Positions 7,088 to 34,064 of a DNA stretch of 41,541 nucleotides are shown one piece after another (the first letter of the stretch is position 1; each line of letters opens with the position of its first letter). The notes beneath the pieces were generated by a model that saw only the letters and a program-made list of their open reading frames with translations, was not told the DNA's origin and did not search any database. The stretch comes from Bacteroidales bacterium (lineage in GTDB: Bacteria > Bacteroidota > Bacteroidia > Bacteroidales > P3), in NCBI GenBank assembly GCA_017530105.1, contig JAFXMW010000040.1:1-41541 (forward strand). Direction: 5' to 3'. Position numbers and translations under genes: made by a program.

Positions 7088-7129
7088 CATTTGTTGATTA
7101 ACACAGAAATAACGATAAAACTACTAAAA

Positions 7130-8764: not shown

Positions 8765-8784
8765 AAACAATCATATTAAACTAT

Positions 8785-8832: not shown

Positions 8833-8856
8833 TTCACCCCTGCCGGGAAAAACCAC

Positions 8857-10521: not shown

Positions 10522-10616
10522 AAACATACGGCAAATCAGGAAAATTTTTTTTTCGAAAACAGTACCTTTTGCAGATGGTTTTACTGCAAGAGAAGTTGAT
10601 TTGCGCAAGGATTTCC

Positions 10617-12763: not shown

Positions 12764-13633
12764 ATGAGTGAATCACAGGAATGGACAACAGTAATCAAGC
12801 CTAAAGATAAATTGTTGGCTGTCGATTTCAAGGAGTTGTGGAGGTATCGCGACCTTTTCACCCTGTTTGTAAAACGCAATATCATCACCCAATACAAGCA
12901 GACGGTACTTGGACCGTTGTGGTTTGTGATACAGCCTGTACTGACGGTGTTGATGTATATGGTGGTGTTTGGCGGCATCGCCGGCATCGCCACCGACGGG
13001 ATACCGCAACCACTGTTCTATCTGGCGGGTACGTGCATGTGGCACTATTTTTCCGATTGTTTATTGAAAACATCAAACACCTTTGTCAGCAATAGCGGTC
13101 TTTTTGGCAAAGTGTATTTCCCCAGATTGATTACCCCTCTTTCCAACGTAACCTCCAATCTGCTGCGTTTCGGTATCCAGATGGGCTTGTTTATCATCGT
13201 CTATGTCATTTACGCCATCGGGGGATGCACAGCGCACTTGACATGGTATATCCTGCTGTTTCCGCTTCTGGTGATAATGATGGCCGGCCTGGCATTGGGT
13301 TTTGGAGTGCTGATTTCGAGTTTGACAACGAAATACCGCGACTTGCAGATACTCTTCTCTTTCGTAATATCGCTGTGGATGTACGCTACCCCCATTGTCT
13401 ATCCGCTTAGCCTCGCCAAAGGCAAGATGGCTCTTGGAATGGATTTATACACCATAATGCGACTCAACCCTGTCACCCCCGTGTTGGAGACCTTCAAATA
13501 CGGAGCTCTGGGTGCCGGTGAGTTTGTGGGATGGTCCTGGCTGGGATACAGCTTTGTGTTTATGGTTGTCCTGCTTGCCGTCAGTATAGTGGTATTCAAC
13601 AAGACTCAGAAGAGTTTCATGGACACTGTGTAG
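12764..13633 (+). CDS. wzm: ABC-2 type polysaccharide export permease
   Basis: 289 residues with about six hydrophobic spans: around 50-70, 80-90, 135-160, 168-190, 200-215 and 255-280. The N-terminal segment [23 protein letters not shown] is typical of Wzm/TagG/KpsM permeases just before the first span. It pairs with the ATPase at 15707. Together they would flip an undecaprenyl-linked glycan to the periplasm. gmd follows after 4 nt, so the genes are co-transcribed. Confidence 0.93.
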
Positions 13634-13637
13634 AGAG

Positions 13638-14759
13638 ATGAAGAAAGCATTGATAACAGGCATCACCGGACAGGATGGCAGTTTCCTGGCAGAGTTTCTC
13701 TTGGAAAAGGGATACGATGTGCATGGGGTAATACGCAGGTCGTCGGTAGACTTTCGTGAACGCATAGCCCATTTGGAGGGACATGTTCATTTCCATCTGC
13801 ACTACGGTGATATGAGTGATACGCTGAGCGTAATCCAGACTGTGATGGCTGTGCAGCCCGACGAGATTTACAATCTGGCAGCCCAAAGCCATGTGCAGGT
13901 GAGTTTCGACGCACCTGAGTATACCGCCAACGTGGATGCCACCGGGGTGTTGAGGATTTTGGAAGCCGTGAGACAGTGCGGGCTGGAAAAGAGATGCAGA
14001 ATCTACCAGGCCAGTACATCGGAACTTTATGGACGCGTGGAACAAGTACCACAGAACGAAGAGACTCCTTTCCACCCCTATAGCCCGTATGCAGTAGCCA
14101 AACTCTATGGCTACTGGATAGTGAAAGAGTATCGTGAGGCATACGGAATGTTCTGCTGCAACGGTATCCTTTTCAACCATGAAAGCGAGCGGCGCGGCGA
14201 GACTTTCGTGACAAGAAAGATAACTCTGGCCGCTGCCCGCATACGCCAAGGGAGGCAGGAGAAACTGTATCTGGGCAATCTGTCGTCGCTGCGAGATTGG
14301 GGCTATGCCCGAGACTATGTGGAATGTATGTGGCTGATACTGCAACACGAGAGGCCAGATGACTTTGTCATCGCCACTGGGGAGCAGCACTCGGTAAGAG
14401 AATTTTGCCAGCTTGCTTTCCACTATGCGGGCATTGAGTTGCGATGGGAAGGCGAAGGAGCTGATGAGAAAGGAATATGCACCGCCGTGGACGGTTCGCA
14501 GCCCGACAGCACGGGTCTGGTTGGCAAGACACTGGTGGAAGTAAGTCCTGACTTTTACCGTCCGACGGATGTGGTCAACCTGCTGGGCGATCCCGCCAAG
14601 GCTAAACGACAATTAGGATGGAACCCCGGAAAGACACCTTTTGACAAGCTTGTGAAACTGATGGTGGAAAACGATATGGCCAAAGTAGCATCAGACCATG
14701 CCGCCGCACGTGTGCGTTGCAATCTGGCCGAGTATCTGGAGAAAGGTATTGTGAAATGA
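13638..14759 (+). CDS. gmd: GDP-mannose 4,6-dehydratase
   Basis: 373 residues, the same length as E. coli Gmd. It is a short-chain dehydrogenase fold with NAD(P)-binding GITGQDGSF (about 8-16) and RRSS. The catalytic Thr/Ser and the Tyr-x3-Lys pair (SPYAVAK) are around residues 129-155. It converts GDP-D-mannose to GDP-4-keto-6-deoxy-D-mannose. The stop overlaps the start of fcl by ATGA, the usual gmd-fcl coupling. The intermediate could also feed an aminotransferase; see the DegT gene at 40093. Confidence 0.97.
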
Positions 14760-15697
14760 ACAAGGAGTCGAAAATATACGTTGCAGGGCATTGCGGAATG
14801 GTCGGGTCAGCGATAGTGCGACGGCTGCAGAAGGACGGCTACCACAATCTGCTGCTACGTTCTCATTCGCAGTTAGATTTATGCCGGCAAGAGGCGGTTG
14901 AAGACTTTTTTGCCAAGGAACGTCCAGAATATGTTTTCCTTGCCGCAGCAAAGGTGGGAGGGATTGTGGCCAACCAAAAGGCTCCGGCCGATTTCATGTA
15001 TCAGAACATGATGCTTGAGATGAACGTAATCCATGCCGCCTGGCAGAATGGATGCAAGAAACTCCTTTTTTTAGGGTCGAGTTGTATTTACCCGAGGCTT
15101 GCTCCCCAGCCCATGCGCGAAGACTGCCTCCTCACCTCGTCGCTGGAACCCACCAACGAGGCCTACGCCTTGGCAAAGATTTCCGGACTGAAATACTGCC
15201 AATACCTTAATCGCCAGTACGGCACTGACTATATTAGTGTGATGCCTACAAATCTCTATGGCCCCGGCGACAACTACCATCCAGAACACAGCCATGTGCT
15301 TCCCGCATTGATACGTCGATTTCACGAAGCAAAGATGGCGGGAGCAGAAGAGGTGACTTGCTGGGGTGACGGGACTCCACTGCGCGAATTCCTTTATGTT
15401 GACGATTTGGCCGACCTTTGTCTGTTTTTGATGAACAATTACAGCGGGGACGAGACGGTCAACGCTGGCACTGGCAAAGAAATAACCATCAAACAATTGA
15501 CAGAACTTGTGGCCCAAGAGGTGGGATACACGGGAAAGATAAAATGGGACATTTCCCGTCCCAACGGTACACCCCGAAAGTTGCTCGATGTGAGCAAGGC
15601 GAAAGCAATGGGGTGGACATACAGAACCGAAATAGAAGAAGGCATCCGCTTGGCCTACCGTGACTTCCTTGAGAATCCTGTCCGGGCGGAACGATAA
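14756..15697 (+). CDS. fcl: GDP-L-fucose synthase
   Basis: 313 residues from the ATG at 14756, which overlaps the gmd stop; an earlier in-frame start at 14717 would overlap gmd by 43 nt. It shows NADP-binding GHCGMVGSA (about 9-17), catalytic SSCIYP, and Tyr-x3-Lys (YALAK). It epimerises and reduces GDP-4-keto-6-deoxymannose to GDP-L-fucose. With gmd this predicts fucose in the glycan. Confidence 0.97.
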
Positions 15698-15706
15698 TCA
15701 TATCTT

Positions 15707-16951
15707 ATGGCAATAGCAATTGAATTTAACAATGTTTCCAAGCAATACCGGTTGGGCTTGGTCTCGACAAAAACACTAAGCCACGACATCCATCGCTGGT
15801 GGACAGTCAACATTCGCGGCAAAGAAGACCCCTATCTGAAAATCGGGTCGGTGAACGACCGCTCATCGAAAGCCGACAGCGAATATGTGTGGGCATTAAA
15901 GGACATTGACTTCAAGGTGGAGCAAGGGGATGTTGTAGGCATTATAGGAAAAAACGGAGCTGGAAAAAGCACACTGCTGAAGATTCTCTCGAAAGTGACG
16001 GGACCCACCACTGGAAGCATACGCGCCCGCGGACGTATCGGATCGCTCCTCGAGGTAGGCACTGGCTTTCACCCTGAAATGACTGGCCGCGAAAACATTT
16101 TCCTCAACGGGGCTATCCTCGGTATGACCAAGGCCGAAATAAACCGGAAACTTGACGAGATAATTGATTTCAGTGGCTGTGAACGCTACATAGACACTCC
16201 TGTCAAACGCTATAGCTCCGGAATGACCGTGAGACTTGGATTTGCCGTTGCCGCATTTCTTGAGCCGGAAATCCTTGTGGTGGACGAGGTGCTGGCCGTG
16301 GGCGATGCCGAGTTTCAACGCAAAGCTATTGGCAAGATGCAAGATGTGAGCAAAGGCGAAGGTCGCACAGTGCTTTTCGTCAGCCATAACATGGCCAGTA
16401 TACAACAACTGTGCCATCACGGAATATTGCTGAAAAACGGAATGGTGGAGAAAACGGGGAATGTAAGAGAAGTGGTCGACTATTACCTCGGCAGCATGCA
16501 AACGGTAAACGACTTTAACCGAGAAGGCAATGGTGCCGTCCGCATCATCGATTTCAGAATTCAGAATAGTTCCATCTCCCTTGGCGAAAATCTTGAAATA
16601 GAAGTCGACATTGAGGCGAAACAGAACGTCACGACTATCGATGCCAGTTTTGACATCAAAGACGAATCAGGCAAACAAGTGGCACACGTGGCCAGCAACG
16701 ATGACGAGTTCCAAATCGGTGCCATGAGGTCTGGCGAGAAGAAAACCATTCATTGCGTGATAAAAAACGTGAACCTCGCACCCGGGGGATACACTTCGAG
16801 TATCTGGATAGGAACACCCTATGTTGAATATGATATGGTGATAAATTGTGTCAGATTTAGTGTTACTCAAAACGATACCTTCATAAAAAGAGGCACCCCT
16901 TACGACAAATACTCGAAAGTAGTGTTGCCATCAAACTGGAAACAATTGTGA
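15707..16951 (+). CDS. wzt: ABC transporter ATPase with C-terminal glycan-recognition domain
   Basis: 414 residues. The nucleotide-binding domain has Walker A GKNGAGKS (81-88), the signature YSSGMTVRLG, Walker B ILVVDEVLAVGD and the switch His in VSHN. After about residue 250 comes a beta-rich extension matching the Wzt C-terminal domain, which in known systems binds the end of the finished polymer and fixes export specificity. It pairs with wzm at 12764, with gmd-fcl inserted between them. A capped or end-modified chain is therefore possible. Confidence 0.94.
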   Translation: MAIAIEFNNVSKQYRLGLVSTKTLSHDIHRWWTVNIRGKEDPYLKIGSVNDRSSKADSEYVWALKDIDFKVEQGDVVGIIGKNGAGKSTLLKILSKVTGPTTGSIRARGRIGSLLEVGTGFHPEMTGRENIFLNGAILGMTKAEINRKLDEIIDFSGCERYIDTPVKRYSSGMTVRLGFAVAAFLEPEILVVDEVLAVGDAEFQRKAIGKMQDVSKGEGRTVLFVSHNMASIQQLCHHGILLKNGMVEKTGNVREVVDYYLGSMQTVNDFNREGNGAVRIIDFRIQNSSISLGENLEIEVDIEAKQNVTTIDASFDIKDESGKQVAHVASNDDEFQIGAMRSGEKKTIHCVIKNVNLAPGGYTSSIWIGTPYVEYDMVINCVRFSVTQNDTFIKRGTPYDKYSKVVLPSNWKQL

Positions 16952-18042: not shown

Positions 18043-19065
18043 ATGAACATCTTAGACTGCACCATACGCGACGGTGGCTATGTGAACAATAACAACTGGG
18101 ACCCCGATATCCTCCGGACAATAGTCTCCTCCCTGTCCACCGCAGGCATCAAATACATTGAAATCGGCAACAACTTTGGACTGGGAGCACACCGACTGTT
18201 CGACTTAGCCCTCAACGACAACGATTTCATGAACATCTGTATGCCATGCAAAGGCAACTCCATTATTGGCATGTGGTATTGGGGGGCCTATGGCAAGAAA
18301 GAGGACATGAAATGGTTTAAGGAAAACGGGGGAGAATTCGTCCGCATAGGTGCCAATTCAAACAATGCTGAATTTGCCTACGAAAACATACGCTACGCCA
18401 AATCCCAAGGGCTGTATGTTTTTTGCAATCTAATGAAATCCTACGCCATCAGCCGATACCAGCTTGCCAAAGTGGCAGAAGAGATTGAAGCCTGTGGCGC
18501 CGACTGCCTGTATGTTGTCGACTCGGCGGGAGGCATGCTGCCCGACCAGGTAGCAGGGTATGTCAAGGCTGTAAAGGAATTCACCAACCTCCATGTTGGT
18601 TTCCATGGACACAACAACCTACTCATGGCCAACGCCAATAGCCTTGCCGCCCTGCAGGCCGGAGCCGATTTTGCCGACGGCACCCTTCGCGGTCTGGGAC
18701 GGGGAGCAGGCAATGCCCAACTTGAAGCATTGGTGGCCATCTGCCAGAAAGCCCGCATCATGCCCAACAACTGCAACCCTCTTGAACTGGCTGAAGTGGC
18801 AGGCAAAGTGGCGGGCAACCTATTGGTTAAAGGTAGTACAAAACGAGAAATCAATGTCGGTTTGGTCAACTTCCACGACTCCTACACCGATATTTTGGAA
18901 AAGACCTCGGCAGAATATGGTGTCGACCCCGAAATACTGATGGCTGAGGTGTGCAAAATCAATGTCATCAACCCCTCCGAAGAACTCTTCGACCTTGCTG
19001 CAAAACGCCTGAAAGAGGGTAAGAAATTCGAATTTGTCCCCGCATACTCTCATAAGATATACTAA
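18043..19065 (+). CDS. DmpG-like (HMGL family) aldolase
   Basis: 340 residues, a TIM-barrel of the HMG-CoA-lyase-like family. The N-terminal metal/substrate motif is DCTIRDGGY (5-13), and the metal-binding GFHGHNN has HGH at 188-190. The run DFADGTLRGLGRGAGNAQLE matches the 4-hydroxy-2-oxovalerate aldolase subgroup closely. These enzymes reversibly join pyruvate and an aldehyde to a 4-hydroxy-2-oxoacid. The usual acetaldehyde dehydrogenase partner is absent; instead a Rossmann-like protein and an ATP-grasp ligase follow. A biosynthetic role making a hydroxylated acid precursor for the glycan is inferred from context. Confidence 0.85.
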   Translation: MNILDCTIRDGGYVNNNNWDPDILRTIVSSLSTAGIKYIEIGNNFGLGAHRLFDLALNDNDFMNICMPCKGNSIIGMWYWGAYGKKEDMKWFKENGGEFVRIGANSNNAEFAYENIRYAKSQGLYVFCNLMKSYAISRYQLAKVAEEIEACGADCLYVVDSAGGMLPDQVAGYVKAVKEFTNLHVGFHGHNNLLMANANSLAALQAGADFADGTLRGLGRGAGNAQLEALVAICQKARIMPNNCNPLELAEVAGKVAGNLLVKGSTKREINVGLVNFHDSYTDILEKTSAEYGVDPEILMAEVCKINVINPSEELFDLAAKRLKEGKKFEFVPAYSHKIY

Positions 19066-19104: not shown

Positions 19105-20127
19105 ATGACAGACCTAAAAATCAGATACGAACAGATGCTCCATGAAATGGAGAGTTTGGTCAAGATAACCAATAAACGTTCTGTCCTTATCCTACTTCAA
19201 CATACCAAACAAGAAGAAACCGAGCCCTGCATACCAGCGGTACGCGAAAGCATCTCAAATATCATTGGTTTTGTCTCTCTTGGCGATGAACAATACCTCC
19301 CCTACATCATCGGGCAGGCCGTAGGCATTGTCGACACAGTGATGATTGATGTCGATGCCAAAAGAGCCAACTCCGAAAAAATCCGGCTCACCGCAACACA
19401 GCTGGCCAAGGATAACGGTATTGCCGTAGCCTATTACAGCGACTATTCCACTTGGATTTCCTCAGCCATTGCCTTTATGCTTGAAATCGAGCAAAAGAAT
19501 AATGGAATAGTCAACTATGAGGACAAACGACTATTGATAGGACGCAATGCCTTGGCAACAAAAATGGTGATGGAGATGATCAACCGAGGCATGGATGTGT
19601 ATCTCTTTGCCCAAGAGTATCCCACGCCCTGTTTCCCCACCACCGGAGGAACCATTGAAATTGCATCACCCCACATTCATATTGTTGATGAACTATCCAA
19701 GACACACTTCAACACCCTTATTGGATGCGAACTGCAACAAAACAGCCCCTATCTTGACCAACTGTCCAACATCCGTTTTGAAATAATCTACGATTTAGGC
19801 ATCAACAACTTCACCCGCGAATTCATCAACCAAAAACGCGAAAACGGCACTCAGGTCTACCGCTCCGACGACCGTGCAGGCATCTCCGGTATAGTAGTCA
19901 ATCTGATGGAAACCAGCGAACTGGTCAAATCGCGTTTGGGAAAGACCTCCATAGGGGGCATCCCCATTGTCAGTGGAGGTTACGTCGGAGAGCAGGGAGA
20001 CGTGGTTGTCGACAATTATGTCGATGCTCACACCGTTCTGGGCATTGCCAACGGCGACGGAACCTTCAAACAAACCCTCACCCCAGAAGATGAAATCAAT
20101 CTAAACCGAATAAAAAAACTGGTCTAA
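19105..20127 (+). CDS. Unrecognised protein with Rossmann/FolD-like segment
   Basis: 340 residues, soluble. I do not recognise the family. Residues 142-170 (KRLLIGRNALATK...GMDVYLF) look like a nucleotide-binding beta-alpha-beta unit, similar in shape to the NADP site of FolD-like or shikimate-dehydrogenase-like proteins. A Gly-rich stretch GGIPIVSGGYVGEQGD lies near the C-terminus. It is set between the aldolase (39 nt before) and the ATP-grasp gene (2 nt after), so it is likely an oxidoreductase or related enzyme acting on the aldolase product. Function is inferred from context only. Confidence 0.7.
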   Translation: MTDLKIRYEQMLHEMESLVKITNKRSVLILLQHTKQEETEPCIPAVRESISNIIGFVSLGDEQYLPYIIGQAVGIVDTVMIDVDAKRANSEKIRLTATQLAKDNGIAVAYYSDYSTWISSAIAFMLEIEQKNNGIVNYEDKRLLIGRNALATKMVMEMINRGMDVYLFAQEYPTPCFPTTGGTIEIASPHIHIVDELSKTHFNTLIGCELQQNSPYLDQLSNIRFEIIYDLGINNFTREFINQKRENGTQVYRSDDRAGISGIVVNLMETSELVKSRLGKTSIGGIPIVSGGYVGEQGDVVVDNYVDAHTVLGIANGDGTFKQTLTPEDEINLNRIKKLV

Positions 20128-20129: not shown

Positions 20130-21338
20130 ATGAGTAACACCGTCATGGTCTTGCCTGGCACCAAATGGCAAGTACCCCTAATTAAGAAACTGAAAGAAAG
20201 AGGCTACCGCGTAGCCGTTGTTCACCCCTATAAGGATGCACCCGCATTCCAATATGCCGACGATGCAGTGTACGCCGACATCCTCGATCGCGAAACCGTA
20301 CTGAAAGCTGCCAAAGAATTAAACGTAGTGGCTGTAATGTCCGACGAATGTGACATCGCCACCCCCACCCTGGCCTACGTCTCCTCTCAGATGGGGCTGC
20401 CGTCCCAAACCGAGCCCATGGCACGCCTCTACACCGACAAGTCACTTATGCGTGACTTCTGCCGTGAACATGGCCTACCATGCCCGCAATACCAAGTTTG
20501 CGAAACCCTCGACCAAGCCATCGACTTCTTCCGCGCACTCAATCACAAAATGGTCATCAAACCCATCGATGCCAACAGTAGCCGAGGCGTTTTCACCATC
20601 GAGACCGAAGAACAACTACGACAACTCTTCGACTCCTCCATAGCCTACTCCCACCACCGCCATGCCGTAATATGTGAAAGTTTCATCTCTGGAGCTGAAT
20701 TCTCCGTCGACGGCATCCGGATGCCCGACAAGCATGTCTGCCTGGCCATCTCCGAAAAGCAGCAGTTCGACTACAACCGCAATCTGGACAGCTACCTCTA
20801 CTTCTCCTACGACAACCCGCTCTACGACTACGACCGCCTGCGTGAGGTCAACAACCGTTTTGTCGAACTCTCCGGACTCCCCTTCGGCTTCACCCATGCC
20901 GAATACCGCTACGAAAACGGCGAATTCTACCTCCTCGAAATAGGTGCCCGCGGCGGTGGCGGTCTCCTCTCCTCCATCATCGTCCCGGCTCTCACAGGTC
21001 TGGACAACTACGACATCCTCATCGACATGTTCGTCGGCAACAAAGTAACCAAGGTGATTGACGAAAAGAAATTCAAAAACAATAAAATCGCCGTAGTGAA
21101 ATTCTTCGACACTACCGAAGAAGGAGGAGTAGTGAAAGCCATAAAAGGCATCGACTTTCTGAACTCAACGAAAGAAATCCTCTACTGGCAACTCGACTTC
21201 AAACCCGGCGACCGCATTCACCGTCCCACCGACGGCGGCAACCGTATAGGCTTCTGTTTCTCCTGCACCGAAGGACGCGAAGCCATGGCTGCCCTGCAAG
21301 ACGAAATCGACAAAAGAGTGATTATCGAATATGAATAG
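20130..21338 (+). CDS. ATP-grasp carboxylate-amine ligase
   Basis: 402 residues. The N-terminal pre-ATP-grasp domain (VMVLPGTKW) is followed by the ATP-grasp core: MVIKPIDANSSRG with Lys144, the hinge region ICESFISGAEFSVDG (182-196), and metal-binding LLEIGARGGGG with Glu271 and Arg275. Such enzymes form an amide or ester bond through an acyl-phosphate. The substrate is unknown; an amino acid or the aldolase-derived acid is plausible. The end overlaps the next gene by 8 nt (ATGAATAG). From here to 23832 the coding strand becomes markedly C-rich. Confidence 0.88.
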   Translation: MSNTVMVLPGTKWQVPLIKKLKERGYRVAVVHPYKDAPAFQYADDAVYADILDRETVLKAAKELNVVAVMSDECDIATPTLAYVSSQMGLPSQTEPMARLYTDKSLMRDFCREHGLPCPQYQVCETLDQAIDFFRALNHKMVIKPIDANSSRGVFTIETEEQLRQLFDSSIAYSHHRHAVICESFISGAEFSVDGIRMPDKHVCLAISEKQQFDYNRNLDSYLYFSYDNPLYDYDRLREVNNRFVELSGLPFGFTHAEYRYENGEFYLLEIGARGGGGLLSSIIVPALTGLDNYDILIDMFVGNKVTKVIDEKKFKNNKIAVVKFFDTTEEGGVVKAIKGIDFLNSTKEILYWQLDFKPGDRIHRPTDGGNRIGFCFSCTEGREAMAALQDEIDKRVIIEYE

Positions 21339-22266
21339 CTCCGCCCCAAGCGTCAGCATCTGCTGTCTGGCCTACAACCATGCACCCTTCATCCGTCAAT
21401 GTCTCAACGGATTCCTCATGCAGGAAACCAACTTCCCCATCGAGGTGCTCATTCACGACGATGCCTCCACCGACGGCACCGACGACATACTCCGTGAGTA
21501 CCAAGCCAAATATCCCGACAAAATATTCCCCATCTACGAGGAACAAAACAAATTCTCACAAGGCTACCGCGGACGCATGGACATCGAATTCAACTACTCC
21601 CGCGCCAAAGGCAAATACATAGCCTATTGCGAAGGCGACGACTACTGGACCGACCCCCACAAACTGCAACGACAAGTGGACTTTCTCGAGTCCCACCCCG
21701 ACTACTCCATCTGCTTCCACCGCTGCAGCCACCTCAACAACGTCACCGGCAAACTAACCCCCGACAACTGCGGCGGCATCATCCCTTCCGGACAACAAGG
21801 AGTCGACATCACCATCGGAATGTTCATGAGCAAATGGATAACTCAACCCCTCACCATGGTGTTCCGGCGCGACAAATTCACTCCCGATTGGCAGAAACAA
21901 TACAAATACTACCGCGACATGCACGAAATCTACCACCTCCTCAACGTTGGCAAAGGCTACCTCTTCGCCTTCAACGGCGGAGTCTACCGCTACCATCCCG
22001 GTGGTGTCCACAGCATGATTTCCGCATCACAATACTGCCTCATGTCACTCCCCACCGATGAAGAATTCTACCGCATCAACCCCTCCCCCTATTCCAAACG
22101 AACCTACCTCGACACACTGCAGGAATGTATCAAAGTCTATGCCGGCACAGACAAACCCAAAGCCTTGAAATACCTCTTCACACACTTCCGCGTCTCCCGC
22201 AACTTCCGCGCCTTCATCAAACAACTGCGCATAATACTGCAAAGCAAAAACACAAACCAACAATAA
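21331..22266 (+). CDS. GT2 family glycosyltransferase
   Basis: 311 residues. GT2 signature IHDDASTDGT (41-50) and metal-binding EGDDYW around residue 99-104. It resembles the group of short capsule GT2 enzymes with SHPDYSICFHR after the metal site. It starts inside the end of the ATP-grasp gene and is followed after 21 nt by the adenylation gene. Specificity unknown. Confidence 0.9.
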   Translation: MNSSAPSVSICCLAYNHAPFIRQCLNGFLMQETNFPIEVLIHDDASTDGTDDILREYQAKYPDKIFPIYEEQNKFSQGYRGRMDIEFNYSRAKGKYIAYCEGDDYWTDPHKLQRQVDFLESHPDYSICFHRCSHLNNVTGKLTPDNCGGIIPSGQQGVDITIGMFMSKWITQPLTMVFRRDKFTPDWQKQYKYYRDMHEIYHLLNVGKGYLFAFNGGVYRYHPGGVHSMISASQYCLMSLPTDEEFYRINPSPYSKRTYLDTLQECIKVYAGTDKPKALKYLFTHFRVSRNFRAFIKQLRIILQSKNTNQQ

Positions 22267-22287
22267 ACACCAATCACCCACACCAGG

Positions 22288-23832
22288 ATGAACCCCACCA
22301 CATTCCAACAACAGATACTCGACCCACTGCTCAGGCATTTCGACCAAAACGCCGACAGCGATGCTTTCTTCATCGGCGGCAAAGCCTACTCCTATCGCAC
22401 CTTGCTCGCCCGCATCACTGCCATACGCACCCGTCTCCACAACCGCAACGACAACTCCAACCTTCTCGCCATTATTCTCGACGACCATATCGACACCTAT
22501 GCCTCCATCCTGGCCCTTTGGTTCGAAGGCCTCGCCTATGTTCCGCTCCACCCCCTCCAGCCTGCCAGCCGCAATCTGAACATCCTGCAACAAACCAACA
22601 CCCAAACACTGCTCTGCACTTCCACAGGCACAGACCTCACAACCCAAGCCCAACAAATCGGCATCAACATCATCCAGACAACAACCCTTGCCGACCCAAC
22701 AACACCCGACACCACCATCCTCCCCGCGGACGATAACAGCCTCGCCTACGTCCTCTTCACCTCCGGCAGCACCGGAACCCCAAAAGGAGTGTGCCTAACA
22801 CGTGACAACCTTGCCTCCTTTGTCGATTCATTCTGGAAAACCGGTATATCCATCCAGCCCAACGACCGCTGTCTGCAAGCCTTCGACCTCACCTTCGACG
22901 TAAGCATACAAACCTTTCTCACAGCACTGCTCTCCGGCGCCTGCGTATGCACCATACCCTACGGCCAGATAAAATACCTCTACGCCGCACAACTGATTAT
23001 GGAACAACACATCTCATGCGCCTCCATGGCCCCCTCCATGCTCACCTACCTCAAACCCTATTTCTCCCAACTCGACGCCAAAAGCCTCAAAACCTGCATC
23101 CTCACCGCCGAAGCCTGTCCCATCGACCTCCTGCAACAATGGGGACAATGCGCCTCAAACGCCGACCTCTACGACTTCTACGGCCCCACCGAAGCCACCA
23201 TCTACTGCACCTACTACAAATACAACCGCAACACCGCAAACCCCTCAGCCAACGGCATCTGCTCCATCGGCAAACCTCTCGCCAACATCCAAACCCTTAT
23301 CATAAACGAAGAAGGACAAACCCTGCCCCAAGGCGAAAAAGGAGAACTCTGCGTGGCTGGCCGCCAAGTAACCCCCGGCTACTGGAACAACCCCGAAAAA
23401 AACAGCACCTCATTCCTCTCCATCGAACACAACGGCACCAAACAAACCTACTACCGCACCGGCGACCTCTGCCAACAAGACCCCGACGGCAACCTCCTCT
23501 ACTTCGGACGCATCGACCAACAAGCCAAAATTCAAGGCTACCGTGTCGAACTGGGCGAAATAGAATACCAAGCCCGCCAACACTTCGCCGGACAAAACCG
23601 CACCGCGGCAATAGCCTACACCGACAACCGTGGCATCACCGAAATAGCCCTCTTTGTCGAAACCCCTTCCTCCGACACCACCTCACTCACCAACCACCTC
23701 AAAAACACACTCCCTCCCTACATGATTCCCTCCCGCATAATCTGCCTTCCCAACTTCCCGCTCAACCGGTCAGAGAAAATCGACCGCACAGCCCTGAAAC
23801 TCATCGTCACGACACAAAACGCTGATTCCTAA
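22288..23832 (+). CDS. Stand-alone NRPS-type adenylation enzyme (amino acid-AMP ligase)
   Basis: 514 residues, close in length to DltA and free-standing A domains. Core motifs are A3 LFTSGSTGTPKG (156-167), A4 FDVSI (203-207), A5 FYGPTEA (297-303), A7 YRTGDL (389-394), A8 GRIDQQAKIQGYRVELGEIE (407-426) and the A10 Lys497 in RSEKIDR. It should activate a carboxylic acid as AMP ester and load it on the ACP encoded 202 nt downstream. Asp204 aligns with the Asp that grips an alpha-amino group in amino-acid A domains, favouring an amino acid substrate; that is a by-eye alignment. The gene is extremely A+C-rich and G-poor on the coding strand, unlike the genes after it. Confidence 0.92.
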   Translation: MNPTTFQQQILDPLLRHFDQNADSDAFFIGGKAYSYRTLLARITAIRTRLHNRNDNSNLLAIILDDHIDTYASILALWFEGLAYVPLHPLQPASRNLNILQQTNTQTLLCTSTGTDLTTQAQQIGINIIQTTTLADPTTPDTTILPADDNSLAYVLFTSGSTGTPKGVCLTRDNLASFVDSFWKTGISIQPNDRCLQAFDLTFDVSIQTFLTALLSGACVCTIPYGQIKYLYAAQLIMEQHISCASMAPSMLTYLKPYFSQLDAKSLKTCILTAEACPIDLLQQWGQCASNADLYDFYGPTEATIYCTYYKYNRNTANPSANGICSIGKPLANIQTLIINEEGQTLPQGEKGELCVAGRQVTPGYWNNPEKNSTSFLSIEHNGTKQTYYRTGDLCQQDPDGNLLYFGRIDQQAKIQGYRVELGEIEYQARQHFAGQNRTAAIAYTDNRGITEIALFVETPSSDTTSLTNHLKNTLPPYMIPSRIICLPNFPLNRSEKIDRTALKLIVTTQNADS

Positions 23833-23904
23833 CTCAATCCGACTTTTTTTTACATTTATTGTTTACATATTCATACTTCACTGAAAACCAGCTCTATATC
23901 TATC

Positions 23905-23971
23905 ACATATATATTACATATATATCACATATATATCAGTTATATATTCAATCAATATATAAGTGATATAT
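23905..23971. repeat. AT-rich 4 x 11-bp tandem repeat with dyad (copy A)
   Basis: Four 11-bp units follow directly: ACATATATATT (23905-23915), ACATATATATC (23916-23926), ACATATATATC (23927-23937) and AGTTATATATT (23938-23948). The last 18 bp (23931-23948) are an inverted repeat of 23954-23971 with one mismatch and a 5-nt loop. It fills most of the gap between the adenylation gene and the ACP gene. A related copy is at 34701-34744. Confidence 0.75.
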
Positions 23972-24034
23972 AACCGACACAAAACCATTGCAAAAAATAC
24001 GCACCAAGAAATAACCCATAAGTACAAAAATACA

Positions 24035-24277
24035 ATGACACGACAGGAACTCATAGAAACCCTACAGCCGATAGTCCGTCGCTCGTTCTCCGATCCTAAC
24101 TTGTTGATTACCGACGACCTCACACCTGCCAACACGCCTGCCTGGACTTCACTCTCCTTCACTCAGTTGCTGACAGAAATCGAGAATCAATTCGGTATCA
24201 AGTTCGGAATGCTTGAATTGCTGCAAATGCAGAACATGGGCAGTATCGTCGACAAAACCCTGTCCCACCTCTCCTGA
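24035..24277 (+). CDS. Acyl carrier protein (variant)
   Basis: 80 residues from the ATG at 24035; an in-frame upstream start at 23963 would read into the AT repeat. The helix pattern and the segment TSLSFTQLLTEIENQFGIKF match ACP helix II and what follows. Ser39 sits where 4'-phosphopantetheine is attached, but the usual Asp of the DSL motif is Thr (TSL). It follows the adenylation gene and directly abuts the GNAT gene (TGA then ATG with no gap), so it most likely carries the adenylated acid to that transferase. Confidence 0.82.
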   Translation: MTRQELIETLQPIVRRSFSDPNLLITDDLTPANTPAWTSLSFTQLLTEIENQFGIKFGMLELLQMQNMGSIVDKTLSHLS

Positions 24278-25339
24278 ATGAACAACCTCGCTCCGGAAAT
24301 AAAGCTTTTCACTGCCGGCGACCTTGCAGACTGGCTGGCAACAGGTCACAGCACCGCAGGACTCTCCAATGAAGTGATTTCGCGATGCCGTGCCGCGGCT
24401 ATTGCCCACAACCCCTACGTACACAAGGACGACCCATGTGTGGCAGCCATTTACATCAATGGCAAGCCAGTCACATTCACCGCCACGTTTGCCGACAACA
24501 TCAATGGCACCGTCTACCGGTGGTTCAGCACCCTGTGGTGCAACCCCGAACACCGTGGGAAAGGGTACCCACTGATTGCCGTCGGCACGCTGATTGAACA
24601 TTATGGAGCGGAAAAATGCCTCGATATGTGGGGAGCGCCGGAGACCGTTGAGATATTCAGGTATTTCGGACACAACGACACCACAGTGCCGGAGTACCAA
24701 TTTACGCCTAAGAGCATCCGACGCGACAGTCTGAAAGGTCAGGCGGCATACTTGCTCAACAAACTGAAGAGAAATTTCGGCGGCGGAAGAACGAAGCAAC
24801 ATCGAACTTTCATCGAACCTACCTACAGGCTGCAATACACCAACACGGTGGACGAGGAGACCTATTGTTTTATCCAGAACCATGCCGGCGGGGACCTGAT
24901 TCCCCGTACCCGCGAAATGTTGAACTGGATACTGGCTTATCATTTCATGCAGAGGACTCCGCTGCTTGCCTCCAAAGAGGGTGGCAACCCGTTTCACGAT
25001 TGCGACAGCCGCTATTGGATGAGCGGGGTGAAACTGTTTGTCGACGACCGACTCGCGGCTTTCTATATTCTTGTTGACTCGGACAGGGGGTTGTCGGTTA
25101 AATATTTATACTACGACAAGGAGTATGCCGATTGTGTGTTCGATTCGGTTGCACGCCATGTGCAGACTCTGCGGAACCCCCGTTTCACGACCCGCCACCC
25201 GCAATTGGCCGACTATATCGATTCGATGCATCTTTTCGACAAAAAGACCATCGTCCCCATATCCTTTTCCTACCCCCCGGCATTTGCTTTCCCGGCAACG
25301 GCAATGTCGCAGGGTGGCGACGGCGACGGGTTTGTTTGA
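24278..25339 (+). CDS. GNAT-fold acyltransferase, putative ACP-dependent
   Basis: 353 residues. The N-terminal half has GNAT features: WFSTLWCNPEHRGKGYPLIA with the acyl-donor loop HRGKGY (92-97), followed by a typical alpha/beta segment ending in ETVEIFRYFGH. The C-terminal half (about 175-353) is of unknown type and may be a second, degenerate GNAT-like domain. The start codon directly follows the ACP stop. Inference: it moves an acyl group from the ACP to a sugar amine or nucleotide-sugar. A CoA donor remains possible. Confidence 0.72.
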   Translation: MNNLAPEIKLFTAGDLADWLATGHSTAGLSNEVISRCRAAAIAHNPYVHKDDPCVAAIYINGKPVTFTATFADNINGTVYRWFSTLWCNPEHRGKGYPLIAVGTLIEHYGAEKCLDMWGAPETVEIFRYFGHNDTTVPEYQFTPKSIRRDSLKGQAAYLLNKLKRNFGGGRTKQHRTFIEPTYRLQYTNTVDEETYCFIQNHAGGDLIPRTREMLNWILAYHFMQRTPLLASKEGGNPFHDCDSRYWMSGVKLFVDDRLAAFYILVDSDRGLSVKYLYYDKEYADCVFDSVARHVQTLRNPRFTTRHPQLADYIDSMHLFDKKTIVPISFSYPPAFAFPATAMSQGGDGDGFV

Positions 25340-25374: not shown

Positions 25375-26094
25375 ATGATTGTCACAAATCTTCCTGCAAT
25401 TGGACGGAAAATAAACAAGCGAGCCGACAGGTTGCGTTTCCAGCCTTTGGAGGTATTTGTAATCCATGCTGTTACGGACACCTATAACCCTGAGGCCTAC
25501 TTGCGGGAGGACTGGATGCAGACAGAAATATTTGTACAGACTATCAAACGATTGAAAAGAGACTACACATTTATTCCACTTACCGAGGCCTATGGGCATT
25601 TGAAGCACGATTGGCTGCGACGCAGGCGTTATGCTGTGCTGACGTGCGACGACGGTTTTGCTTCGGTGCAGGGGATACTGCCATTCCTTGAATCGGAAAA
25701 GGTGCCCATCACCCTATTCATTAACCCGCGCTATCTGGACGGAAAGAGCCGACGCGAGGGGTATGCCCCGTCGGTTGAGTATTTAACCGAGGCTCAGCTG
25801 GCAGGTTTGACGTCACACCTTGTCAGTATAGGAATGCATGGTTACGAACATTTGGATGCAACTAAACAAAGCGAGGAGGAATTCGGGCGCTCGGTGACAC
25901 TTTGCACAGAGATGCTCGGCAAGCATCCGCGCTACATACCTTACTTCGCCTACACATGGGGAAGGAATAACGCCACTACCGAAAGGGTTCTGAAACGCAT
26001 GGGGGTTGTGCCTGTGCTTTGCGACGGAGCCTCGAACTACCATTATCGCGGTGCCATCAGCCGGAGACTTCTGCCTGAAGAAGAAAACAAATAA
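25375..26094 (+). CDS. Polysaccharide deacetylase (CE4/NodB-like)
   Basis: 239 residues, no signal peptide. The NodB motif 1 equivalent is LTCDDGF (usually TFDDG), and motif 2 is MHGYEH with the two metal-binding His separated by three residues. Known members remove N-acetyl groups from glycans in a metal-dependent way. It lies 35 nt after the GNAT gene. De-acetylation could free an amine for the acyl group of the ACP, a link that is only inferred. Confidence 0.82.
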   Translation: MIVTNLPAIGRKINKRADRLRFQPLEVFVIHAVTDTYNPEAYLREDWMQTEIFVQTIKRLKRDYTFIPLTEAYGHLKHDWLRRRRYAVLTCDDGFASVQGILPFLESEKVPITLFINPRYLDGKSRREGYAPSVEYLTEAQLAGLTSHLVSIGMHGYEHLDATKQSEEEFGRSVTLCTEMLGKHPRYIPYFAYTWGRNNATTERVLKRMGVVPVLCDGASNYHYRGAISRRLLPEEENK

Positions 26095-26105: not shown

Positions 26106-27089
26106 ATGTCAACCCCTAAATATTCCGTCATAGTCCCACTCTACAACAAGGAACGGTATATCGAGCGCACATTATCGAGCATACTGGCGCAACGTTCCGA
26201 CGTGTCGACACCCGACTATGAGTTAATCGTGATTGACGACGGAAGCACCGACTCATCGCTACAGGTAGCCCGGACTATAATAGGCGACAAACGGCCGTGG
26301 TGCCGCGTGGTGAGTCAGAAAAACAGCGGTGTAGCCGCCACAAGAAACAACGGTGTTGCCATGTCGACGGGTGAATATATCTGTTTTCTTGACTCGGACG
26401 ACTGGTGGGAGCCGGATTTTCTGGCGGAGATGGACAGGCTGATTGCCGATTTCCCAGAGGCGGGCATGTACGGCACGGGTTTTTATTTGGTGAAAAACGG
26501 CAGACGTTCGGTCGCCCCTATCGGAGTGGACAAAGATTTTGAGAGGGGATATATCAATTACTGCCAAACTTATGCCAAGACCCTTTGCATGCCTATCACA
26601 TCGAGCTCGGTGGCAATAAGGAGAGAGTGTTTTGTGGAGGCAGGACAGTTTAACACCAAGCTCACATTCGGGGAGGATTTCGACCTGTGGATACGGTTGG
26701 CTTTGGCACACCCTGTGGCATTGGTAAACAAACCGTTGTCGAATTATTTTCAAGACCAGCCTGTGAAAGGACGGGCGACACGCCGACTGCACAACCCGGA
26801 GAACCACATGCTGTGGAATCTTGAATACCTGAGTGACGAGGAGAAACGGAACGGGGACTTGAAACTGTTGCTTGACAAACTGCGCAGCAGCGGGTTGTTT
26901 TTCTATTACCTTTCGAGCCAATACCACGATGCGACACTGCCCGAACTGGCTAAAATCGACTGGACTAAACTGCCCCATTCCTCATACAAGAAATACAATT
27001 CGCCTATTTGGCGTGAACGGCTTGTTTTCCGGCTAAGGCGTACGGGAGCAACCATAAAGAAGACACTTTTGTCTATTGTTCATTCATAA
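26106..27089 (+). CDS. GT2 family glycosyltransferase
   Basis: 327 residues with YSVIVPLYNKE at the start, VIDDGSTDSS (42-51) and the metal-binding LDSDDWWEP around 95-103, all typical GT2. The C-terminal part is basic. Begins 11 nt after the deacetylase gene; its end overlaps the most upstream possible start of the next gene. Donor and acceptor unknown. Confidence 0.9.
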   Translation: MSTPKYSVIVPLYNKERYIERTLSSILAQRSDVSTPDYELIVIDDGSTDSSLQVARTIIGDKRPWCRVVSQKNSGVAATRNNGVAMSTGEYICFLDSDDWWEPDFLAEMDRLIADFPEAGMYGTGFYLVKNGRRSVAPIGVDKDFERGYINYCQTYAKTLCMPITSSSVAIRRECFVEAGQFNTKLTFGEDFDLWIRLALAHPVALVNKPLSNYFQDQPVKGRATRRLHNPENHMLWNLEYLSDEEKRNGDLKLLLDKLRSSGLFFYYLSSQYHDATLPELAKIDWTKLPHSSYKKYNSPIWRERLVFRLRRTGATIKKTLLSIVHS

Positions 27090-29616: not shown

Positions 29617-29749
29617 TCATTTTGACCATTCACATACTCTTTGCTGACAATAGCCTTTTGCCTGCTCATAAGCAACATTATACAGAAAAGCCCTTTTCGT
29701 GCATTCAGTCTCTCTGATGAGGGTGAAAATAATAAATAAAAAACATATT

Positions 29750-30709
29750 ATGAAATCAGTCGGTTTACCCATATCACACAAGGAAAACGAAAGGCGGAGG
29801 ACACTGGTTCCCCGCGACATACCATCCATCAAACACCCCGACCTTATTTCCATTGAAAAGGGCTATGGAGATGTGCTCGGATACCGCGACGAAGATTATT
29901 CCAGCCTTGGAGTGAACGTAGCAGACAGGTCTACTGTGCTGGCCAAAGACATCATTGCCGACCCCAAGGTGGGAGATGCCGAATATCTCGACACCCTGAA
30001 GGGACAAACCGTGTTCGGATGGCTCCATGCCGTACAAAACCGCGACATCACCGACAAGGTAATCAACGGTGGACTGACAGCCTACGCATGGGAGGACATG
30101 TACGAAGAGGGGCGACACAGTTTCTGGCGCAATAACGAGATAGCCGGCGAAGCCGCCGTCTTCCACGCCTACATGTGCCACGGCATATTCCCCTACAACA
30201 CCCGCGCGGCAGTGCTGGGACGAGGCAATATTGCTCGCGGGGCGGTGAAAACACTCAATTTCATGGGTGCCGAAGTGATACAATACGACCGGAAAACAGA
30301 ACAACTGTTCCGTCATGAACTTGACAGATTTGATGTTGTGGTCAACGCCATTCTTTGGGACACCTCGCGCCACGACCACATCATTTATCGCGAAGACTTG
30401 AAACGCATGAAACAAGGGGCCATGATAATCGATGTGTCGTGCGACCGCAACGGCGGAGTGGAAACCAGTGTGCCCACCACCATCGACAACCCCACCTACG
30501 AAGTGGACGGCATCACCCACTATGTGGTGGACCATACCCCGTCACTTTTCTGGAAAACTGCCACCGAAACCCTCAGCACCGAATTTGTCAAATACATAGA
30601 CTTCCTGATTGAAGACCGCCCTCTGGACAACGAGGTACTGCGTGGTTGCCACAACTTTGAAAAAGGCAAGATACTGGACAACCGCATCATCAAATTCCAA
30701 AACCGTTAA
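29750..30709 (+). CDS. N5-(carboxyethyl)ornithine synthase-like opine dehydrogenase
   Basis: 319 residues from the ATG at 29750; an in-frame ATG at 29699 lacks support. The protein matches the alanine dehydrogenase/transhydrogenase fold group: KSVGLPISHKENERRRTLVP at the N-terminus, the NAD(P)-binding loop AVLGRGNIARG (154-164), then YDRKTEQLF, AMIIDVSCD and VVDHTPSLF. The closest family I recognise is carboxyethyl-ornithine synthase, which reductively joins pyruvate to an amino acid side-chain amine. Related carboxyethyl-lysine residues are known constituents of some Gram-negative O-antigens. A role in making such a decoration here is inferred. Alanine dehydrogenase is a less likely alternative, given length and motifs. 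Confidence 0.8.
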   Translation: MKSVGLPISHKENERRRTLVPRDIPSIKHPDLISIEKGYGDVLGYRDEDYSSLGVNVADRSTVLAKDIIADPKVGDAEYLDTLKGQTVFGWLHAVQNRDITDKVINGGLTAYAWEDMYEEGRHSFWRNNEIAGEAAVFHAYMCHGIFPYNTRAAVLGRGNIARGAVKTLNFMGAEVIQYDRKTEQLFRHELDRFDVVVNAILWDTSRHDHIIYREDLKRMKQGAMIIDVSCDRNGGVETSVPTTIDNPTYEVDGITHYVVDHTPSLFWKTATETLSTEFVKYIDFLIEDRPLDNEVLRGCHNFEKGKILDNRIIKFQNR

Positions 30710-31747: not shown

Positions 31748-32677
31748 ATGAAAGTAATATTTGTAGCCAGCGGCAACAAAAGCGTGGGCACTGTCAGTGC
31801 CTTTGTCCGCTCACAATTCGAATCGCTGCAGCAGGAGGGTCTCGACATGATTCTCTTTCCCATCCGTGGCAAAGGATGGAAGTCATACTCCAAGGCCATA
31901 CTCCAACTGCGACGCCTTATCCGTCGCGAGCGTCCCGACATCGTCCACGCCCACTATTCCGTATGCGGTGTGGCTGCCGCCCTTGCTGCCTGCTGCTCCC
32001 GTTCCAAAGTCGTGGTTTCCATTCTGGGAAGTTTCCCGCGCAAAACCTTCAAACGGAGATGGGTGCGGTTCTTCATCAAGCACATCTGGGATGCCACCAT
32101 TGTCAAATCGCAACGCACAGCCAACCAACTGGGCATGACCCTGCCGGTAATCCCCAACGGGGTGAACCTCGACCAGTTTACACTCATCGACCAACAACAG
32201 GCACGCGAAATGTGCGGATTCGACCAAGACCACAAATACATCATCTGGTGTTCACACCCCTCCCGCACCGAGAAACGCTACAACTGGGCGGAGGAAGCCG
32301 TTAAACTGCTCAAAAACGACAAGGCCGTACTCTATCCCGTATTCGACAAAAGCCACGACGACGTAGTCAAATACATGTGTGCCGCCGACGTACTCCTCCT
32401 CACCTCGGTCATGGAAGGGTCGCCCAACGTAATCAAAGAAGCCATGGCCTGCAACTGCCCCATTGTAAGCACCGATGTGGGCGATGTGTCGTGGGTGACC
32501 GAAGGCGTAGCCGGTACCTATGTGGCACCCAACGGCGACACCCAAGCCCTCAGCCGGATGCTCTCCCAAGCCCTTGCTTTCGGCCAACGTACCCAAGGCC
32601 GCCAACGCATCATCGACTGCGGACTGACAACCCAAAAAACAGCTAAAAAAATAGAAGCCATATATGACACTTTATAA
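31748..32677 (+). CDS. GT4 family glycosyltransferase
   Basis: 309 residues, somewhat short for GT4. It has a GT-B fold with PDIVHAHYSVCG in the N-domain, IPNGVNLDQF at the domain junction, and an intact E-x7-E motif (EGSPNVIKE). Overlaps the next gene by 14 nt. Sugar specificity unknown. Confidence 0.9.
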   Translation: MKVIFVASGNKSVGTVSAFVRSQFESLQQEGLDMILFPIRGKGWKSYSKAILQLRRLIRRERPDIVHAHYSVCGVAAALAACCSRSKVVVSILGSFPRKTFKRRWVRFFIKHIWDATIVKSQRTANQLGMTLPVIPNGVNLDQFTLIDQQQAREMCGFDQDHKYIIWCSHPSRTEKRYNWAEEAVKLLKNDKAVLYPVFDKSHDDVVKYMCAADVLLLTSVMEGSPNVIKEAMACNCPIVSTDVGDVSWVTEGVAGTYVAPNGDTQALSRMLSQALAFGQRTQGRQRIIDCGLTTQKTAKKIEAIYDTL

Positions 32678-34064
32678 CCTCCTCGACCAACACCTCTTCC
32701 TCCCTATAGGCGACCTGGTCTATGGCAGCCGTGTGCAAGCCAAACTGAAAGAACTGCGCCGCACCGACCGCCTCGATGCGGCCCAACTGCGCCAACTGCA
32801 AGACGCTAAACTGCAACGGCTTGTCAGACACTGCTACGACACCGTGCCCTACTACACACAACTCTTCGACCGCCTCGGGATAAAGCCCGAACAAATCAAA
32901 ACCCGCGAAGACCTTGCCCTCCTCCCCGTACTCACCAAACAAACCATACGCGACAACTACGACAACCTCTTCAGCACAGCCATAAGCCCCAAACGCTGGC
33001 GCAAATCATCCACAGGGGGAAGCACCGGAATGCCCCTCAAATTCTGTACCGACACTGCCGAATGGAGCAGCTGGAAAGCCTCCACCCTGCGCGCATGGGA
33101 ATGGTACGGGCTGCAACTGGGCGACAAAATCTTCTCCCTCGGTGGCAGTTCCATCAACAAAAAGAAACAACTCTTCTCCTTCAAAGGCCTCTACGACCGC
33201 GTCATCATGCGCAACTACAAATACAGCAGCGCCGACGTAACCGATGAAAGCATGCACCGCAACTACGTCGAAATGATGAAACTCAAGCCCGCCGCCCTGC
33301 GCGGATACGGCTCGGCACTCTACATTCTGGCACGCTATATCGAAAAACAGCATCTCCCCGTCTGCCCCATCAAAGTCATTCTCACCACAGGCGAAGTGCT
33401 CATGCCCGAATACCGGCGCAAACTGGAAGAAGTGTTCCACGCCCCCCTCTACGATGCCTACGGTGCCGGCGACGGCGGCATCCTCTCGCACGAATGTCCC
33501 GAACACCAAGGCCTGCACATCACCGAAGAAGCCTGCATTATCGAAATAACCGACAAACAAGGCCATCCGCTGCCCGACGGACAGGTGGGACAAGTATGCG
33601 CCACCGACCTCGACAACTACGTCTTCCCCTTCCTCCGCTACCATGTGGGCGACATGGCCTATATCAAAACCGAGCCCTGCCCCTGCGGGCGTGCCTCAAG
33701 ACTCATAGGCGAAGTGATGGGGCGTGCCGGACGACTGATGTACAACAAACAAGGAGTCCCCATTTCTCCCACCGTACTCCCCATGATGTTCTATCCTCAC
33801 CTCGACTACCACAACACCGAATACCAGAAAACCTACTACAAAATCGACAAATTCCAAATCAGGCAAGACCGCAACGGCGACCTGCTGATTCTCCTCAAAC
33901 TCAAAGACCCCTCCGAACCTCACGAACAATTCAATTACATCATCGACAACTACCGCAACCACTTCACCGGCTCGGAAGTGCAACTGCAGTTTGTCGACGA
34001 CATCCCCTGTCTGCCCTCGGGCAAAGAAGACTACTGTGTTTCGGAATACGAATACCAAGCCTAA
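32664..34064 (+). CDS. PaaK/CapK-family adenylate-forming enzyme
   Basis: 466 residues. The phosphate-binding loop SSTGGSTGMP (115-124), the YGAGDGG segment where AMP-ligases have YGxTE, and a Cys-rich CPCGRASRLI match the phenylacetate-CoA ligase-like family, whose capsule members are called CapK. They activate a carboxylic acid as an AMP ester. This is the second adenylating enzyme in the locus, distinct from the NRPS-type enzyme at 22288. Its substrate is unknown; the opine-type acid from 29750 or an uronic acid are candidates. Confidence 0.87.
   Translation: MTLYNLLDQHLFLPIGDLVYGSRVQAKLKELRRTDRLDAAQLRQLQDAKLQRLVRHCYDTVPYYTQLFDRLGIKPEQIKTREDLALLPVLTKQTIRDNYDNLFSTAISPKRWRKSSTGGSTGMPLKFCTDTAEWSSWKASTLRAWEWYGLQLGDKIFSLGGSSINKKKQLFSFKGLYDRVIMRNYKYSSADVTDESMHRNYVEMMKLKPAALRGYGSALYILARYIEKQHLPVCPIKVILTTGEVLMPEYRRKLEEVFHAPLYDAYGAGDGGILSHECPEHQGLHITEEACIIEITDKQGHPLPDGQVGQVCATDLDNYVFPFLRYHVGDMAYIKTEPCPCGRASRLIGEVMGRAGRLMYNKQGVPISPTVLPMMFYPHLDYHNTEYQKTYYKIDKFQIRQDRNGDLLILLKLKDPSEPHEQFNYIIDNYRNHFTGSEVQLQFVDDIPCLPSGKEDYCVSEYEYQA

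What the first reader, a model, noticed from the sequence alone, without database searches (positions are those of the whole stretch)
22288..25339. Adenylation enzyme, variant ACP and GNAT transferase form a likely acyl-decoration module in a capsule locus
A free-standing NRPS-type A domain with all core motifs, a dedicated ACP and a GNAT-fold transferase (ACP stop abutting GNAT start) lie together among glycosyltransferases. The logic matches DltA/DltC, and also the ACP plus ligase genes (rfbK, rfbL) of the Vibrio cholerae O1 O-antigen, where perosamine is acylated with a tetronic acid and export is also by Wzm/Wzt. Here the transferase is a soluble GNAT rather than a membrane protein. Asp204 of the A domain suggests an alpha-amino acid. 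Inference: a surface sugar is N-acylated by an unusual amino acid through an ACP.
Basis: partly seen in the sequence, partly recalled or inferred. Interest (0 to 1): 0.78.

Follow-up and report, generated by a model that had tools for sequence, protein, structure and literature searches.

The report
Capsule sugar deacetylate-and-reacylate gene module
A capsule gene cluster from a Bacteroidales bacterium carries a conserved four-enzyme set that probably strips an acetyl group from a sugar and replaces it with an amino acid handed over by a small carrier protein, a likely new way of varying bacterial surface sugars.

Summary
In detail: an intact NRPS-type adenylation gene (22288-23832), an ACP (24035-24277; WTSL instead of DSL) and a double-length GNAT-like gene (24278-25339) lie in a Bacteroidales-type capsule locus. 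All four recur together in 15 of 16 same-genus loci. GNAT relatives elsewhere sit beside a deacetylase on the same strand in 30 of 40 fetched loci, 25 of them without an A gene. The deacetylase-GNAT pair therefore looks like the core and A-ACP a donor-loading add-on. Best reading: the deacetylase frees an amine, A loads one alpha-amino acid on the ACP, and the GNAT transfers it to the amine (NodB/NodA logic with an NRPS-type loader). The specificity code is nearly constant (DVQ[S/A/P/V]IT[F/L][I/V]Y in 16 of 16) while neighbouring aldolase, ATP-grasp and WbqC genes vary, so the A substrate is probably one common amino acid, not an unusual one; diversity, if any, comes from tailoring. Biochemistry, substrate and acceptor are unproven.

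The parts
22288..23832 (+). Free-standing NRPS-type adenylation enzyme; code D-V-Q-S-I-T-F-I-Y plus Lys497
   Evidence: TIGR01733 339.4 bits; code by alignment to a recalled GrsA fragment; Asp204, Lys497
24035..24277 (+). Dedicated carrier protein, 80 aa, presumed phosphopantetheine Ser39 in WTSL
   Evidence: PF00550 over cutoff on the longer frame 23963-24277; WTS[LI] in 17 of 17 sister copies
24278..25339 (+). Double-length GNAT-like transferase, proposed N-(amino)acyltransferase from the ACP
   Evidence: sub-threshold PF00583; relatives over cutoff; invariant columns in 19 aligned copies
25375..26094 (+). Polysaccharide (NodB-fold) deacetylase, proposed to free the acceptor amine in the cytoplasm
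   Evidence: PF01522 45.1 bits, cutoff 23.1; three motifs in 16 of 16 aligned copies, window included
21331..22266 (+). GT2 glycosyltransferase directly upstream of A
   Evidence: PF00535; found upstream of A in 15 of 15 A-bearing sister loci
20130..21338 (+). ATP-grasp ligase with L-amino-acid-ligase C domain; proposed tailoring of the acyl group
   Evidence: PF13535, PF18603 over cutoff; best PDB hit 4dim 4e-16, L-amino acid ligase 3vot 6.1e-12
19105..20127 (+). Uncharacterised 340-aa protein of the accessory cassette
   Evidence: no significant Pfam, NCBIfam or PDB match; 64-65% identical in 3 sister loci
18043..19065 (+). DRE-TIM (4-hydroxy-2-oxovalerate aldolase-like) enzyme of the accessory cassette
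   Evidence: PF00682; 4jn6 E 7.5e-37; below the PRK08195 and TIGR03217 cutoffs
26106..27089 (+). GT2 glycosyltransferase downstream
   Evidence: PF00535; conserved downstream in the sister loci
12764..16951 (+). Wzm (12764-13633), GDP-fucose genes gmd/fcl, Wzt with Wzt_C domain (15707-16951): ABC export route
   Evidence: PF01061, PF16363, PF01370, PF00005, PF14524

Best explanation
A swap of one N-acyl group for another on a capsule sugar, in the cytoplasm. (1) The NodB-fold deacetylase (25375-26094) removes acetyl from an N-acetyl sugar of the growing or lipid-linked chain (inferred). (2) The A domain adenylates one alpha-amino acid, the same in all relatives by its code, and loads it on Ser39 of the ACP (inferred from family). 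(3) The double GNAT transfers the aminoacyl group from the ACP to the freed amine (inferred from ACP-GNAT and GNAT-deacetylase linkage). (4) Where present, swappable enzymes (ATP-grasp ligase, aldolase, orf19105, WbqC) elaborate the acyl group (speculative). Wzm/Wzt then exports the finished chain (inferred).
For: A, ACP, GNAT and deacetylase in 15 of 16 same-genus loci; the 16th (L037) is a 6.2-kb contig. ACP immediately upstream of a GNAT gene in 13 of the 15. GNAT relatives elsewhere: deacetylase within 100 bp on the same strand in 24 of 40 loci, within 3.5 kb in 6 more, against 80 PF01522 matches in about 82 Mb of 20 such genomes. Presence of an A gene beside the GNAT needs at least four changes on a tree of 58 GNAT proteins, so the link is not one frozen inheritance. 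Deacetylase motifs kept in 16 of 16 aligned copies and carrier WTS[LI] in 17 of 17 sister copies. No strongly hydrophobic segment in GNAT or deacetylase. Nod precedent: NodB mono-deacetylates, NodA moves acyl from an ACP to that residue (PMC5080398 passages). ACP-borne R-groups on an O-antigen amino sugar are proposed in Flavobacterium psychrophilum (PMC6519341 passages).
Against: No biochemistry. The GNAT donor could be a CoA thioester; 34 of 40 fetched distant loci have no A gene alongside, some of them cut by contig ends, and G923 has GNAT and deacetylase in a capsule-like locus but no A match at E 1e-40 in its assembly. The module is not general: 174 of 190 family genomes have no GNAT match. 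The acceptor sugar is unknown and the deacetylase could act on another residue. Two loci (L024, L027) do not have ACP directly upstream of GNAT. 8 of 40 distant loci have no deacetylase hit (3 of these lie within 130 bp of a contig end) and 2 have it on the other strand.
Confidence: 0.5

Rival explanations
1. The A-ACP-GNAT set acylates a nucleotide amino sugar before assembly, as proposed for F. psychrophilum WfpD/WfpG, and the deacetylase works on a different sugar.
For: ACP-to-UDP-aminosugar transfer is the model in PMC6519341 (passages). A DegT/DnrJ aminotransferase (40093-41205) in the window could make an amino sugar.
Against: A deacetylase sits beside the GNAT in most of the wider family (32 of 40 loci on either strand). 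WfpG is described as a PglD homologue, not a GNAT.
Confidence: 0.2
2. GNAT uses acetyl-CoA or another CoA ester; the A-ACP pair serves a different enzyme (an ATP-grasp ligase, or an MBOAT O-acyltransferase in sister loci).
For: 34 of 40 distant GNAT loci lack A. L034 and L035 have A and an ACP next to an MBOAT gene (PF03062 in L034; 82% identical frame in L035).
Against: No MBOAT was matched among the window proteins scanned with Pfam. ACP abuts GNAT in the window and precedes it in 13 of 15 sisters. Deacetylating only to re-acetylate would be futile (argument).
Confidence: 0.15
3. A and ACP hold an amino acid for on-carrier chemistry (aldolase, orf19105) and release an unusual amino acid, which is then attached by the ATP-grasp ligase.
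For: The aldolase-orf19105-ATP-grasp cassette lies upstream of A in the window and in L023, L026, L027.
Against: Aldolase and orf19105 are absent from the fetched stretch of 13 of 16 sister loci, while A, its code and the ACP stay in 12 of those 13.
Confidence: 0.1

Closest known systems
NodB/NodA(/NodF) N-acylation of Nod factors
   Same: deacetylase, then N-acyl transfer from an ACP to the freed amine; specialised ACP (NodF recalled)
   Different: window GNAT gives no Pfam NodA match and the window deacetylase no NodB-equivalog match; acyl would be loaded by an amino-acid A domain, not fatty acid synthesis
Dlt D-alanylation (DltA/DltC; biology recalled)
   Same: free-standing A domain loads a small carrier protein
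   Different: DltA models score far below cutoff (238.9 of 476; 232.5 of 559.85); no MBOAT matched among window proteins scanned; acceptor inferred to be a sugar amine in the cytoplasm
Flavobacterium psychrophilum O-antigen R-group genes wfpC-G
   Same: surface glycan, dedicated ACP, N-acylated amino sugar, variable R-group genes
   Different: R-group proposed from a fatty-acid-like pathway and moved by a PglD homologue (PMC6519341 passages)
Butirosin side-chain pathway (BtrI/J/H; recalled, papers not opened)
   Same: ACP-bound aminoacyl group, ATP-grasp ligase, transfer to an amino sugar
   Different: loading is by ATP-grasp, transfer by a non-GNAT enzyme (recalled, not tested)
Exosortase-A EPS loci (TIGR03098 ligase, deacetylase, FemAB protein; composition recalled)
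   Same: acyl ligase, deacetylase and a GNAT-fold protein in one glycan locus
   Different: window A scores 200.5 against the 592.35 cutoff of TIGR03098; window GNAT has no NCBIfam match at E up to 0.01

Membership tests
NRPS-type amino acid adenylation domain | TIGR01733 over cutoff, core motifs, Asp235-equivalent | tested here: met
   339.4 against 317.4 bits; motifs and Asp204
Dlt system | DltA equivalog score | tested here: not met
   232.5 against 559.85 (TIGR01734) and 238.9 against 476 (PRK04813)
Dlt system | MBOAT (DltB) partner | tested here: not met
   no MBOAT match in the window proteins scanned; present in sister loci L034 and L035
GNAT superfamily | Pfam Acetyltransf clan match over cutoff | tested here: inconclusive
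   window protein 16.5 against 20.7 bits; relatives L049 and L089 over cutoff, while L043 and L093 had no Pfam match; the two halves align only weakly (E 0.043, probability 1.2%)
Polysaccharide deacetylase (CE4/NodB fold) | PF01522 over cutoff and catalytic motifs | tested here: met
   45.1 against 23.1 bits; motifs in 16 of 16 aligned copies
NodA/NodB | NodA Pfam family; NodB equivalog TIGR04243 | tested here: not met
   no NodA hit at E up to 5 (HMMER filters drop most weak matches); no TIGR04243 hit for the window deacetylase at E up to 0.05
Exosortase-A EPS ligase | TIGR03098 over cutoff | tested here: not met
   200.5 against 592.35
V. cholerae O1 rfbK/rfbL | sequence relation of ACP and ligase | not tested
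   no sequence was compared
Aminoacyl-ACP dependent N-acyltransferase | transfer from loaded ACP to an amine | not testable with these tools
   needs enzymes

The most novel reading that the evidence does not exclude
A capsule diversification engine: a fixed deacetylase-A-ACP-GNAT core puts one constant amino acid on a capsule sugar amine, and swappable cassettes (ATP-grasp ligase with or without aldolase, RraA-like enzyme, or WbqC) extend that amino acid on the carrier, so related gut bacteria display different non-ribosomal dipeptide-like side chains on otherwise similar capsules.
Probability: 0.2. Interest if true: 0.8.

Novelty: new variant of a known kind. Interest (0 to 1): 0.6.

Why it matters
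Deacetylation followed by ACP-dependent N-acylation is best known from Nod factors. Here the same logic appears, with an amino-acid loader, in capsule loci of Bacteroidales, and the deacetylase-GNAT pair is spread over the wider group without a job known to me. If true, it adds aminoacylated sugars to the surface repertoire of these bacteria and turns a set of unannotated capsule genes into testable enzymes.

Tried and rejected
Considered and dropped: (a) the aldolase/orf19105/ATP-grasp cassette makes the A substrate: the code does not follow the cassette. (b) Dlt or exosortase-A membership: scores below cutoffs. (c) Naming the amino acid from the code: DVQ..I recalls proline codes (recalled), but F and Y at the last pocket positions do not fit; a literature search for code strings found 0 papers. 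(d) The module as the chain cap read by Wzt_C: by eye the Wzt C-terminal type follows the adjacent GT2a gene instead; not tested formally.

Led nowhere: viral contigs (6 pattern matches, no relative); PDB searches for the GNAT and orf19105 gave nothing significant. Literature searches for the combination gave 0 papers or one paper off the subject by its listing. One search listed two papers on butirosin-related proteins, not opened. The library is open-licence PMC only and matching is by words.

Limits: GNAT matches, own genome counted: 16 of 190 in the family sample, 45 of 393 in the order sample, 6 of 395 in the phylum sample. Of the 49 other order/phylum genomes I fetched 40 loci; the nine left out are G597, G617, G636, G645, G750, G806, G845, G944, G568. 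The deacetylase calls in those 40 loci come from a profile of the capsule-locus deacetylases at E 1e-3; Pfam was run on two of them, both positive. The tree dropped L090 and L107 for odd length, counted L037 as A-bearing with its genus although its contig shows no A gene, and took L088 (cut at a contig end) as without A; several branches are long.

Full report
What is there. The window is a Bacteroidales-type capsule locus: NusG/UpxY-like regulator, initial sugar transferase, Wzm/Wzt, GDP-fucose genes, several glycosyltransferases, Wza- and Wzc-like proteins (the name UpxY is recalled). That the window itself is from a rumen is not shown.

The adenylation gene scores over the TIGR01733 cutoff and has Asp204 and Lys497. 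The ACP has WTSL where carriers usually have DSL; 17 of 17 ACP copies in the 15 sister loci that have one share WTS[LI], while distant ones read WDSL, WNSL or WESI. The third gene is about twice the length of one GNAT domain; it is GNAT only by way of two relatives that pass the Pfam cutoff, and its two halves align only weakly.

The missing partner. Thirty-five bases after the GNAT stop starts a deacetylase gene (PF01522) without a strongly hydrophobic segment. Three motifs stand in 16 of 16 aligned copies, window included. In 16 loci of the same genus, cut from 15 genomes, GNAT occurs in 16, and A, ACP and deacetylase each in 15; the exception, L037, is a 6.2-kb contig. Three loci (L023, L025, L026) carry two GNAT genes. 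A GT2 gene precedes A in all 15.

Wider family. GNAT relatives occur in 45 of 393 genomes of an order sample and 6 of 395 of a phylum sample, the own genome counted in both. Of 40 loci fetched from the 49 others, 24 have a deacetylase within 100 bp on the same strand, 6 within 3.5 kb, 2 on the other strand, 8 none. PF01522 matches number 80 in about 82 Mb of 20 of these genomes (sizes are rounded by the tool and a few matches are two pieces of one gene), so adjacency is far above chance. Only 6 of the 40 have an A gene. On a tree of 58 GNAT proteins (two of 60 dropped for length) the presence of A needs at least four changes (caveats under Tried and rejected). So I take the deacetylase-GNAT pair as the wider unit, which an amino-acid loader with ACP joined or left repeatedly. 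Four distant A-bearing clusters (L093, L101, L102, L114) have a further protein related to the 260-aa GNAT of L093; these four and L110 have different codes, with Lys at the fourth position.

Substrate. Nine pocket positions read DVQSITFIY in the window; over 16 A domains the pattern is DVQ[S/A/P/V]IT[F/L][I/V]Y, and L078, from another family, fits it too. The accessory genes do not stay constant: aldolase-orf19105-ATP-grasp in 3 of 16 sister loci, ATP-grasp with an RraA-like gene in 2, other ATP-grasp genes in 6, WbqC in 3, none of these seen in 2 (L033 and the short L037). The window's ATP-grasp is 76-77% identical to those of L023, L026, L027 and 41% to that of L022, while its GNAT groups with L022 (98/91 support). 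The cassette and the core thus seem to have different histories. The simplest reading is that the core handles one common alpha-amino acid and the cassette changes it afterwards or serves another sugar. Which amino acid is not known.

Mechanism. I propose deacetylation, loading of the amino acid on the ACP, and transfer to the freed amine, all in the cytoplasm, before Wzm/Wzt export. Shown: gene content, motifs, synteny, constancy of the code. Inferred: every reaction. The precedent for the order of steps is Nod factor synthesis (passages of PMC5080398); for ACP-borne groups on an O-antigen amino sugar, F. psychrophilum (passages of PMC6519341). Passages of PMC1569441 on exosortase loci name a polysaccharide deacetylase among correlated genes, and the words ligase and acyl carrier do not occur in it; the rest of that comparison is recalled.

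Against it: 34 of 40 distant GNAT loci have no A gene alongside, and G923, which has GNAT and deacetylase in a capsule-like locus, has no A match at 1e-40 in its assembly. These must use another donor, so donor choice is not shown by family membership. Sister loci L034 and L035 carry A and an ACP next to an MBOAT gene, so an ACP here can also serve an O-acyltransferase. The module is found in 16 of 190 family genomes only, many of them incomplete.

Verdict. Word searches of the open-licence library for this combination found no description of it; that is no proof that none exists.

Noticed in passing
window 1-6976: Integrase (5466-6707, minus) beside tRNA-Ser (6888-6976, minus) and a large LPD14-domain protein (1-3258, minus): probably an integrated element just upstream of the capsule locus.
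   Followed up: no
L034 and L035, about 4100-10600 of the reverse complement: Sister loci carry A-ACP-MBOAT-(~317-aa protein)-VOC-second ACP-GNAT, a Dlt-like set merged with the GNAT set.
   Followed up: partly
L121:8834-9865 (minus), G639: The only orf19105 relative outside the own genome in a 393-genome order sample; it lies beside a WbqC relative (28% to that of L034, E 2e-27). WbqC also takes the cassette slot in L034-L036.
   Followed up: partly
L093, L101, L102, L114: Clusters deacetylase-A-small GNAT-ACP-GNAT with Lys-containing codes (for example DAHKLGVIN), outside any evident capsule locus; product unknown.
   Followed up: partly
L089:9370-12767 (minus): A GNAT-deacetylase pair next to its own ketoacyl synthase III and an ACP-like frame, suggesting a fatty-acyl donor for this version; no second case among the 40 loci.
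   Followed up: partly
L022-L037: A DUF1919 gene lies near the GNAT in 9 of 16 sister loci, and a 371-aa protein without a significant Pfam match in 7 of 16; neither is annotated in the window.
   Followed up: no
window 32664-34064: A second adenylate-forming enzyme, PaaK-like, below the curated cutoffs shown, in the same locus.
   Followed up: no
window 29699-30709: Alanine dehydrogenase/transhydrogenase-like protein, 74-82% identical in the 8 of 16 sister stretches where it was seen.
   Followed up: no
window 15707-16951 and sister loci: By eye, the Wzt C-terminal part seems to change together with the adjacent GT2a gene.
   Followed up: no
window 22001-24000: Strong negative GC skew (about -0.45) over the adenylation gene, unlike its neighbours.
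   Followed up: no
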